From a virus: a stretch of DNA of 64,000 bases. The stretch lies in the IMG/VR virus record IMGVR_UViG_3300033149_006357, positions 1 to 64,000 of that record. One strand, written 5' to 3'. Under the pieces are notes generated by a model. It saw only the letters and a list, made by a program, of their open reading frames with translations. It searched no databases and had not been told where the DNA came from. Shown in pieces: positions 1,295 through 62,226 of the stretch (within the stretch, counting starts at the first letter, position 1; every line of letters begins with the position of its first letter). The position numbers and the translations under genes are program-made.

Positions 1295-1708
1295 ATGAAC
1301 GTAAAAGAGCTAGTAAACCGCGTGTTCAGGGATTGGTCCAGGGACATCGACGGTAAGATCCGCGAGATGTTGGACGAGCGGCTGCATGATACGATTGCAA
1401 AGCTCTTGGGTTTCGACGACTCTTATGGGCGATGGGAAATAGACCACTGCAACGGGCGGAATTCTCCCATTACCAGGTATCTTGACGAGAAGGTGCGCGA
1501 TGCCGTGAGGTGCTGGCTGGAGGAGCATTTTTGCGATCTGCCGGAGCCATCGGATGAATGGTACGAGGCACTGAGAAACGATTACTTGGGGGCGTACAAA
1601 TCTCATCTCAGGCGTCGTGCGTCGTTGTTAGCGGAGAGGGCGGCCAGAGACAGGCTCGACCTATTGTTGCGGGACGCCATAGACGAAGTGGATTTCAATT
1701 TTCAATGA
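1295..1708 (+). CDS. hypothetical helical protein (137 aa)
   Basis: Starts behind AGGAGGG and is followed by an ATGA overlap with the next gene. The chain is highly charged, largely helical, with repeated Arg/Asp/Glu stretches and an Arg-rich segment near residue 108 (LRRRASLLAERAARDRL). No family recognised. Position between tiny early genes suggests a host-interaction or regulatory role, which is inference only. Confidence 0.6.
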   Translation: MNVKELVNRVFRDWSRDIDGKIREMLDERLHDTIAKLLGFDDSYGRWEIDHCNGRNSPITRYLDEKVRDAVRCWLEEHFCDLPEPSDEWYEALRNDYLGAYKSHLRRRASLLAERAARDRLDLLLRDAIDEVDFNFQ

Positions 1709-2085
1709 CTGCTTTTCACATCATCGTGCTTATCGCGGGCATCGTGTCGCAATACAGCCCAGGGGTAATGGAGGAGGTTGTGGCCAACCGCGTGGCCTGG
1801 GAACAGTTGCCATATCCATTGCCGGGGGTGGACGGTTACGTGGCGGTCAGGGACTGCGACCGCATCGGGGACATCATGTATTTGAGGCCTGTCGGCGGCG
1901 AGTGGGAAAAGTTTCTAGTCGCGGACTGCGCCATGCCGCCCGGGACCGATGGGGCGTGGGAGTGGATGACGGAGTACAACATACTGGCGGAGGTGGACTA
2001 TTGGACCGCCGTCAGGTGGAAAACGGTTGGGAGTGTGATAAGGGCGGAAGTTGGCATTAAAGTGGAAAGGGGCTTGATGCCATAG
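1705..2085 (+). CDS. putative exported protein, possibly beta-barrel fold
   Basis: ATGA overlap with the upstream stop fixes the start. The N-terminus (MTAFHIIVLIAGIVSQYSPG) is hydrophobic and may be a signal peptide or anchor. The body contains GYVAVRDCDRIGD, a VADCAMPP segment and an AEVDYW motif, an arrangement that loosely recalls small double-psi beta-barrel (RlpA/3D-like) proteins that act on cell walls. That likeness is weak. It is the last gene before the repeat array at 2098. Confidence 0.55.
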   Translation: MTAFHIIVLIAGIVSQYSPGVMEEVVANRVAWEQLPYPLPGVDGYVAVRDCDRIGDIMYLRPVGGEWEKFLVADCAMPPGTDGAWEWMTEYNILAEVDYWTAVRWKTVGSVIRAEVGIKVERGLMP

Positions 2086-2097
2086 CTATATTGTACA

Positions 2098-2338
2098 AGA
2101 GACCCAGTGGGGTGTAGCGAGCCGTATTATACGAGAAGACCCAGAATGAAGTAGCGAGCCTCATTGTACAAGAGATCCAGAAAATGGAAGCGAGCCACAC
2201 TATATGAGAGAACCAGAAAATGGAGCGAGCCGTGTAATTCGAGAGATCCACATATGGGTAAGCGATTATGTAAGAGACCCATTACCAGAGAGGTACCATA
2301 TAAGAGATCCACCACCCACTAGCGTGAAGGAGAGAGCC
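2098..2338 (+). repeat. array of about seven imperfect 30-37 bp repeats
   Basis: The unit is AGAGAYCCA, then 8-9 variable bases, then AGCGAGCC, then about 10 variable AT-rich bases. AGAGAYCCA-like copies start at 2098, 2134 (AGAAGACCCA), 2171, 2207, 2242, 2273 and 2303, so the spacing is 36-37, then 35, 31 and 30. AGCGAGCC is exact at 2116, 2153, 2189 and 2224 and decays afterwards (AAGCGATT at 2260, AGCGTGAA at 2321). The array starts just after the stop at 2085 and ends a few bases before the start codon at 2346. No significant ORF explains it. It may encode a non-coding RNA or be a set of protein-binding sites for the IS110-like product that follows. Confidence 0.85.
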
Positions 2339-2345
2339 GATCATT

Positions 2346-2972
2346 ATGAAGCGTTATATTGCGTTGCAGAAGCATTTACAGAGAGTGCGTATCGGGCTGC
2401 AAAATCGTTTGGGCAGAGACGGTTTGTACAAAGAGGAGCTGTTGGAACTGTGCGAGTCTATTATTGGACTTGAGGACAGGCTCGATAAGGAGATCGAGCA
2501 AACTGCAAAAGAACACCCTATCTATCACGAGTTGCTAAAGATCAAGGGCATCGGGCCAAAACTTGCATCCAGACTGGTGGCGTACATAGATATCCGCAAA
2601 TGCAACACCGTCAGTCAGCTATGGAGATACGCGGGGTATGGGGTAGTAGACGGAAAAGCGGAGAGGGCCAAAAAGGGGGAAACTCGTCATTACTGTGGTG
2701 AGCTAAAGACCATCCTATACCTGGTAGCCCTGGCGTTTTTGAGGTCTCACAGCCCCTACACGCACCTATACTACGAAGAGCGCGAAAAGCATCCGGACCT
2801 CAAGCCGATGCACCAGCACCTCAGGGGCCTGCGCAAGATGATCAAGATGTTTCTGTCCCACCTATGGGAAAAGTGGCGCACCCTAGAAGGGCTGGAGACG
2901 CGCAAAGCATACGTGATAGAAGTACTCGGACACACACACATACACGAGGCAAAAGACTATGGATGGGAATAA
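2346..2972 (+). CDS. stand-alone IS110-type C-terminal (Transposase_20-like) protein
   Basis: 208 residues that match only the C-terminal half of IS110/IS116/IS902 transposases: a helical N-terminal coiled region (1-60), a helix-hairpin-helix (KIKGIGPKLASRLVA, 65-79), the conserved WRYAGYG (93-99) and the Arg/Leu-rich helices around GELKTILYLVALAFLRS (118-134). The N-terminal RuvC-like DEDD domain is absent. Where these transposases usually carry a conserved serine in an S-G motif after the AYxG box, this protein reads VVDGK, so the recombinase serine is apparently missing. The start is set by GAAGGAGAG upstream. The repeat array at 2098-2338 lies directly upstream, where IS110-group elements carry their guide (bridge) RNA. 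It is more likely a domesticated nucleic-acid-binding protein than an active transposase. Confidence 0.75.
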   Translation: MKRYIALQKHLQRVRIGLQNRLGRDGLYKEELLELCESIIGLEDRLDKEIEQTAKEHPIYHELLKIKGIGPKLASRLVAYIDIRKCNTVSQLWRYAGYGVVDGKAERAKKGETRHYCGELKTILYLVALAFLRSHSPYTHLYYEEREKHPDLKPMHQHLRGLRKMIKMFLSHLWEKWRTLEGLETRKAYVIEVLGHTHIHEAKDYGWE

Positions 2973-3129
2973 ATGGCTTATGGCGCTGACCATTGTATGT
3001 ATGCTAGCAGATGGGCATCTTGGATGCAAAGCCGAACAAGGGCGGGAAGAGTACCAAAAAAAGCTAATGGAAGAAAAGCGTAAAAGATGGGAGGATCTAC
3101 TACGCTCTGCGGCAGCTACACAGGACTAG
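2959..3129 (+). CDS. small putative lipoprotein (56 aa)
   Basis: Overlaps the end of the IS110-like gene by 14 bases and has a GAGG ribosome binding site. The N-terminus (MDGNKWLMALTIVCMLADGHLGC) looks like a short signal peptide ending in a lipobox-like LGC at residues 21-23. The rest is a charged helix (EYQKKLMEEKRKRWEDLL). Overlap and spacing suggest co-translation with its neighbour. Function unknown. Confidence 0.5.
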   Translation: MDGNKWLMALTIVCMLADGHLGCKAEQGREEYQKKLMEEKRKRWEDLLRSAAATQD

Positions 3130-3400
3130 ATGCCGGGCAGATGCATCCCTGCAGAATGAACCGGAAGACAGATCGAGGGACCGCTCGATGATCCCAATGT
3201 GGTGATATCACAAAGAGGAGGCGCCTGATGAGGGAGAGATAGGGACAAGGGCGCGGAGTGAATGCGAGGGGGCGGCATCCCGATGAGGCATGGGGGTGAT
3301 TTGGGGGGAGGAGGGGACTATCGCTGTCGTAGCAGTACGGTGCACGAGAAAACAGATGGGGGGTATTTGATAAATGACGATTAACGATGTACTTTTATGT
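3130..3400. other. G-rich non-coding stretch
   Basis: No convincing gene. The + strand is very purine- and G-rich between about 3210 and 3330 (runs of 4-6 G). A 40-codon frame can be read from the ATG at 3260 but has a poor ribosome binding site and a low-complexity Gly-rich product, so it is not called. Confidence 0.5.
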
Positions 3401-3407
3401 ATAACTG

Positions 3408-3699
3408 GCGATACTTAGCGATACTTAGCGTGCCGTGACGATATTGTATTAACACTTGCGCAACCTAGGGATAACGTTAGCTAGTGTGTATACACAAACG
3501 ACAGTTTGCTATGCCTAGGGAATGCCAGATAGCACTTGCAATACTTTTTTAGCTGCAGCGCGGCTTGCAATACATAGCGTATATGTAAGTGCGATACGCG
3601 CCTTACATGTAAGACCGATACACTGATACGGCGATACACCGATACACCGATACGCGTAAGGGCAACATACTGTTACACTGTTACACGTAAGACCGATAC
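3408..3699. repeat. GATAC iteron cluster, possible origin or regulator-binding region
   Basis: GCGATACTTA occurs twice in tandem (3408, 3418). GATAC then occurs at 3593, 3617, 3625, 3633, 3641, 3649 and 3695; the five copies from 3617 to 3653 are spaced exactly 8 bp. A 19-bp direct repeat, TTACAYGTAAGACCGATAC, starts at 3603 and 3681; its first ten bases are palindromic (TTACATGTAA) in the first copy. A second short repeat, ACTGTTAC, lies at 3669 and 3677. The region holds no gene. Iterons of this kind are typical of replication origins, partition sites or multi-site operators. Confidence 0.75.
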
Positions 3700-3720
3700 G
3701 CCGGCAAGCCGCCAAACTAG

Positions 3721-3743
3721 TTGACATAAATAACCTTAAAATT
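3721..3743 (+). promoter_or_regulatory. conserved upstream element (copy 1)
   Basis: TTGACATAA followed by ACCTTAAAATT. Nearly the same element lies at 60874 ahead of the other rightward promoter, with the same TGTTAC-type repeats further upstream. It is probably an activator-binding site, UP-element-like AT-rich box or operator. No suitably spaced -10 box follows the TTGACA, so it is not called as a promoter itself. Confidence 0.55.
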
Positions 3744-3822
3744 GACTGAACGTAGATATTGCCAAGTAGCGCCCGCTCGAGGGCGCGTGAGGTTGTGTTA
3801 CGTTGTGTTCTGTAAAGCGCGT

Positions 3823-3851
3823 TTGCAAGTCTCGGCGCCCTGTGGTATACT
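3823..3851 (+). promoter_or_regulatory. sigma70-type promoter, TTGCAA-N17-TATACT
   Basis: -35 TTGCAA at 3823-3828 and -10 TATACT at 3846-3851, 17 bp apart, about 70 bases upstream of the coiled-coil gene at 3920. The -10 context TGTGGTATACTTG is shared with the promoter at 60919. Confidence 0.75.
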
Positions 3852-3919
3852 TGGCGTGTGCGTGGAGGCGCATACGGCCGCTCTTTACCAGCCAAATAGA
3901 CTAGGAAGGAAGGAAAATC

Positions 3920-4711
3920 ATGTCGTACAAAGACCTAATCTCGGGCGCATCGGAAGAGTTTTTCGAGAGTGTCGATCTACGCAATGTGATCGAACGCTTC
4001 CCTACAATCACACTCTGTAGCGCGCTGTCGGCTGCTTGCAGCACTTGGCGTGAGTATGACGATGTGGAGGCGCAAGAGCAGATCGACGCGATCGAGAAAC
4101 AACTAGCCGCTCTTGCACAAGAGCGGCAAGGGCTCGATTTCTCAGTTTTTGCGCAAGCCTTGGCTGGGAAGGAAGCAAGCGAGATTGCCAGTATGCTTGC
4201 GGATCGAGAGAAGCGCCTTGCAGAGATTGCGAGCGAGCGAGAGAAACTTCAGGTCGAGAAGTCGCTTCTCCAAGAGCGACGCAAGACAGAAGCAGTACTT
4301 GCGTTCGTCAAGGCTTGTGGGGGGCGCCCGAGCACAGGGCGCGCGGCGACGTCCGATCTTACGGCTCTTGCGTGGTCTTGCAAAGCTTACGGAAGCGTTT
4401 GGACGATCTACGGATCACCTAGGTCTTGGCTTGTGTGGAAGGACAACAAGCCGGTCGCGTCAAGCAAGGACGTAGACATGGGTATCACAAGCCGAACTGG
4501 TTTTCGCAAGGTGATCTATGTCTTGGCCGGCAAGCTTGCCGGTTACGGCAAGGGTACCAATGCCTTGTCCAAGGCACACAAGGACAACATGTTGGGCGGC
4601 ATCCATGCCGGCGGATCGGCCGGCGTGGTAGACTTGTCCGATGTGGGCCCTTGGGCGCAAGGCTACACTGAGTTTTTCGCGCCCCCCAAGTCAAAGGACA
4701 AGACCAACTAG
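3920..4711 (+). CDS. coiled-coil protein (263 aa), unknown, own transcription unit
   Basis: A free-standing gene with its own promoter (3823), strong GGAAGGAAGG ribosome binding site and intrinsic terminator (4727), so probably an abundant product. Residues 50-125 form a charged coiled coil (EQIDAIEKQLAALAQERQ; AEIASEREKLQVEKSLLQER). The C-terminal half is Gly/Lys/Ser-rich and aromatic (SCKAYGSVWTIYGSPRSWLV; KVIYVLAGKLAGYGKG), which could be a nucleic-acid-binding or structural domain. No family recognised. Its place beside the iteron cluster allows a role in replication, segregation or DNA packaging, but this is speculation. Confidence 0.75.
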   Translation: MSYKDLISGASEEFFESVDLRNVIERFPTITLCSALSAACSTWREYDDVEAQEQIDAIEKQLAALAQERQGLDFSVFAQALAGKEASEIASMLADREKRLAEIASEREKLQVEKSLLQERRKTEAVLAFVKACGGRPSTGRAATSDLTALAWSCKAYGSVWTIYGSPRSWLVWKDNKPVASSKDVDMGITSRTGFRKVIYVLAGKLAGYGKGTNALSKAHKDNMLGGIHAGGSAGVVDLSDVGPWAQGYTEFFAPPKSKDKTN

Positions 4712-61370: not shown

Positions 61371-61744
61371 TGGTTGCGAGCGGATACATTCCATACACAC
61401 CAACGAACTGCTTTGACCACGGAGTGGGCATCATAAAGTGCGCTTTAGGAGAGGATTTTTCCGCGACAGGCAAGAGCCCCGATGCCAGGGCGTTTATCGG
61501 AGAGATTGCGCGGATCTTTAAAAACAGGAGAATACTCGTTTGGAATAACCTTGACGTAAGAAAACGTTTCCCGCGAAACGTGGAGTACATGGGCGATGTA
61601 GATAGTATATTCGTGGACGACCCGTGGAATTATATATGGTGTAGCCTTGTACTTACGGATGAGGGCCATTTACATATGATCGTCGGCGGTCCAATCGGAA
61701 AAAATCGAACGGTTGTCGCATGCGCGATCTCTACGTTGGCATAG
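61370..61744 (+). CDS. hypothetical protein (124 aa)
   Basis: Start overlaps the SSB stop (TAATG). Alpha/beta protein (DHGVGIIKCALGEDFSATGK; RILVWNNLDVRKRFPRNVEY; WNYIWCSLVLTDEGHLHMIV). Overlaps the RuvC gene by 25 bases. Located between SSB and RuvC, so a role in recombination is likely. No family recognised. Confidence 0.55.
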   Translation: MVASGYIPYTPTNCFDHGVGIIKCALGEDFSATGKSPDARAFIGEIARIFKNRRILVWNNLDVRKRFPRNVEYMGDVDSIFVDDPWNYIWCSLVLTDEGHLHMIVGGPIGKNRTVVACAISTLA

Positions 61745-62226
61745 ATAATGGGACGCGCATCATAGGGATGGCCGCCGTAGACGAGAGGAGAAATGTAGTA
61801 TGGACGAGGCTGATACGTGTAAGCGGGAAAATAGATAGCAGGCTGAAAAAGATCTGGAAAGAGGCAACGGACTCACTTTGCGGTCTAGATGGCAGGTTTT
61901 ACGTTGGAATAGAAGGACCATTTTTCGGGCGCAATACGCGCAACAACAGGACGCCGATCTTACTGGGATACTCATGGGGCATAATGTACGCGTGTGCATT
62001 GAGCGCTGGAGCGAGTGGGGTATACGAGATAGCCCCGTCCACAGCAAAATTGGCACTTACAGGCGCAGGCAACGCGACAAAAGAACAAATGTGCGAATGC
62101 GCTGGCTACGATAGTCAGGACGTGAGCGATGCGGTGGGAGTGGCGCTAGCGGTATATGATAAGCTTAGAGGAGATCGTAAGCACAAAAATAGAGTGCCTA
62201 AAAAAGGGGAAAAAGCAAGTCCTTGA
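61720..62226 (+). CDS. RuvC-like Holliday junction resolvase (168 aa)
   Basis: RNase H-fold resolvase with the acidic site D9 (YVGIDNGTRIIGMA), E65 (FYVGIEGPFF), and D134/D137 (DSQDVSDAVGVALAVYDKL). It also has APSTAKLALTGAGNATKEQM, a RuvC hallmark. Cuts four-way DNA junctions in recombination or before packaging. Overlaps both neighbours. Confidence 0.9.
   Translation: MRDLYVGIDNGTRIIGMAAVDERRNVVWTRLIRVSGKIDSRLKKIWKEATDSLCGLDGRFYVGIEGPFFGRNTRNNRTPILLGYSWGIMYACALSAGASGVYEIAPSTAKLALTGAGNATKEQMCECAGYDSQDVSDAVGVALAVYDKLRGDRKHKNRVPKKGEKASP

What the first reader, a model, noticed from the sequence alone, without database searches (positions are those of the whole stretch)
2098..2972. Short-repeat array coupled to a stand-alone IS110-type C-terminal protein
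Seen: about seven units of AGAGAYCCA-N8/9-AGCGAGCC-N10 (2098-2338), then a 208-residue protein matching only the C-terminal (Transposase_20, HhH) half of IS110 transposases, without the DEDD domain and apparently without the recombinase serine. Known: IS110-group elements encode a structured bridge RNA from the non-coding region next to the transposase gene, and the RNA is bound by the protein. Inference: a phage has kept the RNA/DNA-binding half of an IS110 recombinase together with an array of RNA- or DNA-binding sites, giving a domesticated RNA-guided, regulatory or inhibitory system. The array does not look like CRISPR and is not a normal IS. I know of no described system with this layout.
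Basis: partly seen in the sequence, partly recalled or inferred. Interest (0 to 1): 0.92.

Follow-up and report, generated by a model that had tools for sequence, protein, structure and literature searches.

The report
Phage TIGR array with TasA gene
A virus of bacteria carries a short list of two-part guide RNAs next to the gene for a protein that uses them to find DNA; this is a member of the TIGR-Tas systems described in 2025, not a new kind of system, and what it aims at is still unknown.

Summary
In detail: window 2098-2345 holds an alternating two-repeat array directly upstream of an intact 208-aa gene (2346-2972). The layout is known. It is a TIGR-TasA locus (Faure et al., Science 2025, PMC12045711): edge repeat (AGAGAYCCA), 9-nt spacer A, loop repeat (AGCGAGCC+N), 9-nt spacer B, 36-nt period, then a stand-alone Nop-domain protein. 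Four units are intact; the last three have damaged loop repeats. The family profile scores TasH 204 and TasR 196 bits, IS621 only 39. The predicted fold (pLDDT 95) matches TasH and TasR at Z 22, IS621 at Z 15. A repeat-only DNA search found at least 120 viral stretches; 86 encode a Tas relative, always on the array's strand, median 23 bp away. No IS110 DEDD domain exists in the record. Most likely the array yields about four guide RNAs that lead a TasA dimer to bind, not cut, two-part DNA targets. No target was found, here or (beyond chance) for 1,248 related guides against 1.2 Mb. New member of a known kind. Extras: spacer B here varies mainly by transitions; about 75 mycobacteriophages carry a stem-loop version, a tractable model.

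The parts
2063..2092 (+). candidate promoter of the array (TGGAAA-18-TATATT)
   Evidence: 9 of 12 consensus bases, not more than shuffles give; position just before the first edge repeat is suggestive only
2098..2133 (+). TIGR unit 1: edge AGAGACCCA, spacer A GTGGGGTGT, loop AGCGAGCCG, spacer B TATTATACG
2134..2170 (+). TIGR unit 2: edge AGAAGACCCA (one base longer), spacer A GAATGAAGT, loop AGCGAGCCT, spacer B CATTGTACA
2171..2206 (+). TIGR unit 3: edge AGAGATCCA, spacer A GAAAATGGA, loop AGCGAGCCA, spacer B CACTATATG
2207..2241 (+). TIGR unit 4: edge AGAGAACCA, spacer A GAAAATGG (8 nt), loop AGCGAGCCG, spacer B TGTAATTCG
2242..2272 (+). damaged TIGR unit 5 (31 nt): intact edge repeat, loop repeat cut to AGCGA
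2273..2302 (+). damaged TIGR unit 6 (30 nt): intact edge repeat, loop repeat not recognisable (AGGTACC)
2303..2345 (+). terminal unit 7: intact edge repeat, degenerate remainder that holds the likely Shine-Dalgarno sequence AAGGAG of tasA
2346..2972 (+). tasA, 208 aa: stand-alone Nop-domain (coiled coil, HhH/Transposase_20, C-terminal helices) TIGR-associated protein

Best explanation
It is a dual-repeat TIGR array followed by a tasA gene in a tailed phage. Shown here: array anatomy, protein family and fold, and conserved coupling of array and gene in relatives. Inferred from the published system: the array and tasA are transcribed together; TasA is needed for cutting the transcript into ~36-nt tigRNAs, perhaps by a host RNase; a TasA dimer holds one tigRNA through the box C (CC/CCA) and box D (AG) ends of edge and loop repeats; spacer A pairs with one strand and spacer B with the other strand of an adjoining ~18-bp site, unwinding and sharply bending the DNA. 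As TasA has no nuclease domain, the most likely outcome is binding without cutting, which blocks transcription or replication of DNA of another element or of the host. That last step (which DNA, to what end) is not shown; I give it about even odds, and the stated confidence is for the identity and the guide-RNA binding mechanism.
For: Edge/9/loop/9 units of 36 nt as defined in PMC12045711. phmmer of this protein alone against solved structures: TasR 9mty 104.7 bits, TasH 71.4 bits, no IS110 transposase named as such at E<=1. Family profile: TasH 203.7, TasR 196.4, IS621 38.8, ISCro4 38.3 bits. AlphaFold2 model pLDDT 95.3; VIA-align Z 22.3 (TasH-tigRNA-dsDNA), 22.1 (TasR-tigRNA-DNA, 192 residues, rmsd 1.9 A), 14.9 (IS621), 6.5 (archaeal Nop56/58). 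TasA relatives in viral contigs carry ~36-nt dual-repeat arrays beside the gene, and the two closest, L036 (45% identity) and L079 (44%), have them directly upstream as here. Conversely a DNA search for the repeats alone gave at least 120 viral stretches, 86 with a Tas relative, all 86 co-directional, median distance 23 bp, 70 within 100 bp. Box D covaries between edge and loop within loci (AG/AG here, TG/TG in L015) as the paper reports.
Against: No RNA data, so processing and binding are inferred. Three of seven units are damaged, so part of the array may be dead. No natural target was found: own genome best 15 of 18, as for decoy pairs; exact bipartite matches in viral contigs were 0, 1, 1 and 2 per scan in unrelated contigs and genes, about what chance would give. 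No terminator lies between array and gene, so array processing without harming the tasA message is assumed.
Confidence: 0.93

Rival explanations
1. Domesticated or decayed IS110 element: the DEDD half was lost and the repeats are what is left of, or evolved from, the bridge-RNA region.
For: Pfam names the protein Transposase_20; the fold does match IS621/ISCro4 at Z about 15.
Against: Profile bits 204/196 for TasH/TasR against 39 for IS621; PF01548 (DEDD_Tnp_IS110) has no match in the 77-kb record while the control genomes ring; dozens of relatives are solo Nop proteins too; the array fits tigRNA units, not one two-loop bridge RNA, and folds no better than shuffles (z -1.0).
Confidence: 0.02
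2. TasA-bound DNA operator array: the repeats are double-stranded binding sites for the protein, which represses its own promoter, and no guide RNA is made.
For: The array sits between a possible promoter and the tasA start codon; the last repeat overlaps the ribosome-binding site.
Against: In 61 of 86 relatives the nearest unit lies downstream of the gene, where an operator would make little sense; always co-directional; strict 9-nt variable spacers (1,378 and 1,380 of 1,461 units) fit guides, not operators; FpTasA with its array gave 36-nt RNAs in PMC12045711.
Confidence: 0.03
3. Same TIGR-TasA locus, but inactive: the array has decayed and only four or fewer guides are left, with no current function.
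For: Units 5-7 have broken loop repeats and irregular lengths; the closest relatives have 8 or more clean units.
Against: Four consecutive units and the tasA frame are intact, and all residues invariant in the nine-member alignment are present.
Confidence: 0.2
4. RNA-guided regulator of the phage's own genes (self-targeting guides).
For: Gene regulation is among the roles proposed for TIGR systems (PMC12045711).
Against: No match beyond decoys in this phage's whole record, with or without wobble pairs, and none in the first 100 kb of Microcystis phage Mvi-JY20 (108 kb), another phage with such a locus; 1,248 distinct related units show no excess of self-matches in their own loci.
Confidence: 0.05

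Closest known systems
TIGR-TasA with dual-repeat array (Faure et al. 2025, PMC12045711; e.g. Flavonifractor plautii FpTIGR)
   Same: Alternating edge and loop repeats of 8-12 nt, 9-nt spacers A and B, ~36-nt units, solo Nop-domain Tas protein beside the array; many such loci lie in tailed phages
   Different: Only four intact units; array upstream and leading straight into the gene, without its own terminator; box D is AG rather than UG; spacer B sequences are unusually alike
Microcystis phage Mvi-JY20 locus (PP438412, protein XAI95461, annotated hypothetical)
   Same: TasA homologue (37% identity), loop repeat GCGAGCC, about 9 units of ~36 nt, not annotated as such in the record
   Different: Array lies downstream of the gene and ends in a terminator-like hairpin; edge repeat ACGAAACCC
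TasR (9mty) and TasH (9w04, 21kl) of the same systems
   Same: Fold Z about 22 over the whole protein; same tigRNA logic
   Different: They carry an N-terminal RuvC or HNH nuclease; this protein has none
IS110-family recombinases (IS621 8wt6, ISCro4 9t56)
   Same: Shared Nop/Transposase_20 fold, Z about 15
   Different: No DEDD domain, no catalytic serine segment, no bridge RNA, no element ends

Membership tests
TIGR-Tas, dual-repeat type | Two alternating 8-12-nt repeats separated by ~9-nt spacers, most often 5-15 units | tested here: met
   four clean units plus three damaged ones
TIGR-Tas, dual-repeat type | Array next to a gene for a Nop-domain Tas protein | tested here: met
   conserved in relatives
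[quoted passage not shown]
   box C CC(A), box D AG in both repeats here; TG in both in L015 and L009
TIGR-Tas, dual-repeat type | Typically (not by definition) the array ends with a truncated edge repeat and a rho-independent terminator | tested here: not met
   no terminator-like site at 1700-4000; the paper calls this typical only, and upstream arrays of the closest relatives run into the gene likewise
TIGR-Tas, dual-repeat type | Transcription and processing into 36-nt tigRNAs bound by Tas | not testable with these tools
   needs small-RNA sequencing
TIGR-Tas, dual-repeat type | Spacers A and B pair with opposite strands of adjoining DNA | tested here: inconclusive
   no natural target found beyond chance
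TasA (solo Nop) subtype | No N-terminal HNH or RuvC domain | tested here: met
   208 aa, only PF02371; model fully covered by the Nop part of TasH/TasR
IS110 transposase | N-terminal DEDD (RuvC-like) domain | tested here: not met
IS110 transposase | Catalytic serine in the Transposase_20 domain (position from general knowledge of IS621) | tested here: inconclusive
   no serine in residues 93-117, but the IS621 sequence alignment ends just before that site, so the position was read by eye
CRISPR | One repeat of about 25 nt or more with longer spacers | tested here: not met

The most novel reading that the evidence does not exclude
The spacer B series of this array (TATTGTACA, TATTATACG, CATTGTACA, CACTATATG, with partial TTATGTA and CATATA) keeps one purine/pyrimidine string, YRYYRYRYR, while spacer A is free. 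Read most boldly, the phage keeps one half of each guide on a shared, wobble-tolerant or promoter -10-like target class and varies only the other half, so that the array is a list of promoters to be silenced by nuclease-free TasA.
Probability: 0.07. Interest if true: 0.7.

Novelty: new member of a known kind. Interest (0 to 1): 0.38.

Why it matters
It shows that an unaided reading of raw sequence found the anatomy of a system described only in 2025. It adds a member with a partly decayed array to the TasA group, whose natural targets and purpose are the main open question. The side results make that question more testable: a repeat-only search recovers TIGR loci in large numbers, the guides do not aim at the phages' own DNA near the arrays, and a stem-loop TasA system sits in about 75 sequenced mycobacteriophages of a genetically tractable host.

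Tried and rejected
Self-targets in the own record with both possible orders of the two halves and gaps 0-2, with and without G-U/G-T wobble: same as decoy pairs. Cross-targets of 1,248 distinct guides against 1.2 Mb of held phage DNA, gaps -3 to +5: same as decoys at every gap. Promoter motifs among 2,605 spacers: no enrichment of TATAAT or its complement. Exact targets of units 1-3 in viral contigs: isolated hits in unrelated genes. Shared 9-mers between unrelated arrays: 47 against 30 expected, part of the excess from related loci; the 9-mer CATTGTACA shared by this array and the Mvi-JY20 array is one of them and was not followed further. Protein relatives in plasmids: none. Rfam: none. Structured RNA over the array: z -1.0. 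Transition-only variation of spacer B: extreme among 231 array sides, but with an ordinary transition bias of 2:1 the chance of at most 2 transversions in 16 changes is 0.06, so drift of copied units suffices. Close relatives by protein sequence alone in viral contigs: none, hence the alignment-based search.

Full report
Check of the observation. Window 2098-2345 holds seven edge repeats (AGAGAYCCA with two variants) and four copies of AGCGAGCC in alternation. TRF reports a 36-nt period. AGCGAGCC occurs nowhere else in the 77-kb record, and a unit pattern that forms a chain of four here never forms a chain longer than one in 100 dinucleotide shuffles. Each clean unit is 9 (edge) + 9 (spacer A) + 9 (loop) + 9 (spacer B). 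Unit 2 has one extra base in the edge repeat and unit 4 one base less in spacer A. Units 5 and 6 have lost part of the loop repeat, and unit 7 runs into the ribosome-binding site of the gene at 2346-2972.

What it is. A search of solved structures with the single protein gave TasR (9mty, 105 bits) and TasH (71 bits) and no IS621-type transposase. These names belong to TIGR-Tas, described by Faure and colleagues in Science in 2025 (PMC12045711, read). [quoted passage not shown] They are processed to 36-nt tigRNAs whose two spacers pair with opposite strands of DNA. Solo-Nop TasA is reported as the commonest effector. Every visible feature of this locus fits that description except the typical terminator.

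Protein tests. A 50-member profile of relatives found here scores TasH 203.7, TasR 196.4, IS621 38.8 and ISCro4 38.3 bits. AlphaFold2 with 49 aligned sequences gives mean pLDDT 95.3. Against solved structures the model scores Z 22.3 with TasH bound to tigRNA and DNA, 22.1 with TasR (192 residues, rmsd 1.9 A), about 15 with IS621 and ISCro4, and 6.5 with archaeal Nop56/58. Foldseek agrees in order. The DEDD domain of IS110 is absent from the whole record.

Coupling in relatives. Eleven relatives were fetched with a two-sequence alignment, ten from viral contigs and one from a bacterial genome. All but one (L007, where only a looser repeat was seen) show ~36-nt dual-repeat arrays beside the gene. 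In 86 of them a Tas relative was found by HMM, on the same strand in all 86, with median distance 23 bp and 70 within 100 bp. The stretches are of unequal length, so 86 is a lower bound. From 124 loci 1,461 units were read, of which 1,378 have a 9-nt spacer A and 1,380 a 9-nt spacer B. The two closest relatives of the window protein (L036, L079) carry their arrays directly upstream, as here, with 8 or more clean units.

Mechanism. Shown: anatomy, family, fold, and coupling. Inferred from the published system: co-transcription, processing to tigRNAs that needs the Tas protein, a dimer holding one tigRNA through boxes C and D, and bipartite binding of DNA with strong bending. As no nuclease is fused, binding without cutting is the likely action. 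The paper itself proposes blocking of transcription or replication of other elements, or help to integrases, for TasA. I rate silencing of foreign or host DNA as the most likely purpose, at about even odds, with the rest spread over integrase help, partition and unknown roles.

Targets. None was found. In the own record the best matches (15 of 18) equal those of decoy pairs made by recombining A and B halves, also with wobble allowed. The same holds for Microcystis phage Mvi-JY20 (first 100 kb searched). For 1,248 distinct guides against 1.2 Mb of held phage DNA, no order of halves and no gap from -3 to +5 exceeds decoys, in self or in other loci. This speaks against self-regulation near the arrays. 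It says nothing about hosts or distant phages. Exact matches for units 1-3 in the viral collection were few and lay in unrelated genes.

Array growth. Spacers within one array resemble each other more than spacers of different arrays: pairs with at least 7 of 9 identities at unit distance 1 are 17 against 2.8 expected for A and 19 against 2.6 for B. In 190 of 253 such pairs at any distance only one half is alike. Copying of half units inside arrays is the simplest reading, and bears on the open question of how these arrays grow. The null used pairs from different arrays, so compositional likeness within a genome adds to the excess.

An oddity of this array. Spacer B of units 1-3, of the half unit before the first edge repeat, and of the partial units 5 and 6 differ only by transitions; unit 4 adds two transversions (sequence). 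Among 231 array sides this is the extreme value, and random quartets reach it 4 times in 200,000. If the spacers are drifted copies, a transition bias of 2:1 makes it unremarkable (P = 0.06). The likeness of the complements to -10 boxes is not general among TIGR spacers. I leave it as unexplained, with drift of copies as the default.

A tractable relative. The homologues in mycobacteriophages (75 records) have no dual-repeat array in the record examined. In the gap upstream of the gene they have five stem-loops, found as inverted repeats and kept in nine aligned phages with 99% of cells paired, six pairs with changes on both sides, and a covariation score above all 500 shuffles and all slid controls. 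Inside the stems, two ~9-nt stretches after CCA and before CG vary between phages as exchangeable cassettes. This looks like the stem-loop TIGR type of PMC12045711. The paper cites a mycobacteriophage review for phage TIGR loci, so the authors probably know of them; I could not see its table S1. Their spacers also have no match beyond decoys in two of the phage genomes.

Verdict. Ordinary as a kind, sound as an observation: a TIGR-TasA locus, partly decayed, in a phage record that is probably complete (96-nt terminal direct repeat).

Noticed in passing
L003 2117-2452 (Mycobacterium phage Buttons MN119377, upstream of gp66) and the same place in L142-L149: Five conserved stem-loops with covarying stems and exchangeable ~9-nt spacer pairs upstream of a TasA homologue in about 75 Mycobacterium smegmatis phages, where it is annotated as transposase, DNA-binding or hypothetical protein: looks like a stem-loop TIGR array in a tractable host. 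In many of the records a Cas4-family exonuclease gene follows directly.
   Followed up: partly
   Followed up: partly
1,461 units in 124 loci (L002-L135, window): Spacers inside one TIGR array are often partial copies of one another, usually in one half only, which suggests growth by copying of half units.
   Followed up: partly
2089-2302: Spacer B of successive units in the window array varies mainly by transitions around YRYYRYRYR; extreme among 231 array sides.
   Followed up: partly
1-96 of the window and the last 96 bases of the record (L004 16984-17079): A 96-nt terminal direct repeat: the 77,079-base record is probably a complete genome of about 76,983 bp, and the methyltransferase gene at 34-699 spans the junction.
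   Followed up: yes
61720-62226: Separate gene for a RuvC Holliday-junction resolvase (PF02075) in a phage whose Tas protein lacks a RuvC domain.
   Followed up: no
2959-3129: Small ORF of 56 aa with a hydrophobic N-terminus and a lipobox-like HLGC that overlaps the end of tasA; no family found.
   Followed up: no
3400-3720: Intergenic stretch rich in short repeats (GCGATACTTA, ACCGATAC, ACTGTTAC); possibly an origin or control region.
   Followed up: no
L002 4640-4990 (Microcystis phage Mvi-JY20): Unannotated TIGR array of about nine units with a terminator-like hairpin after a TasA gene; its spacer CATTGTACA is identical to spacer B of unit 2 in the window.
   Followed up: partly
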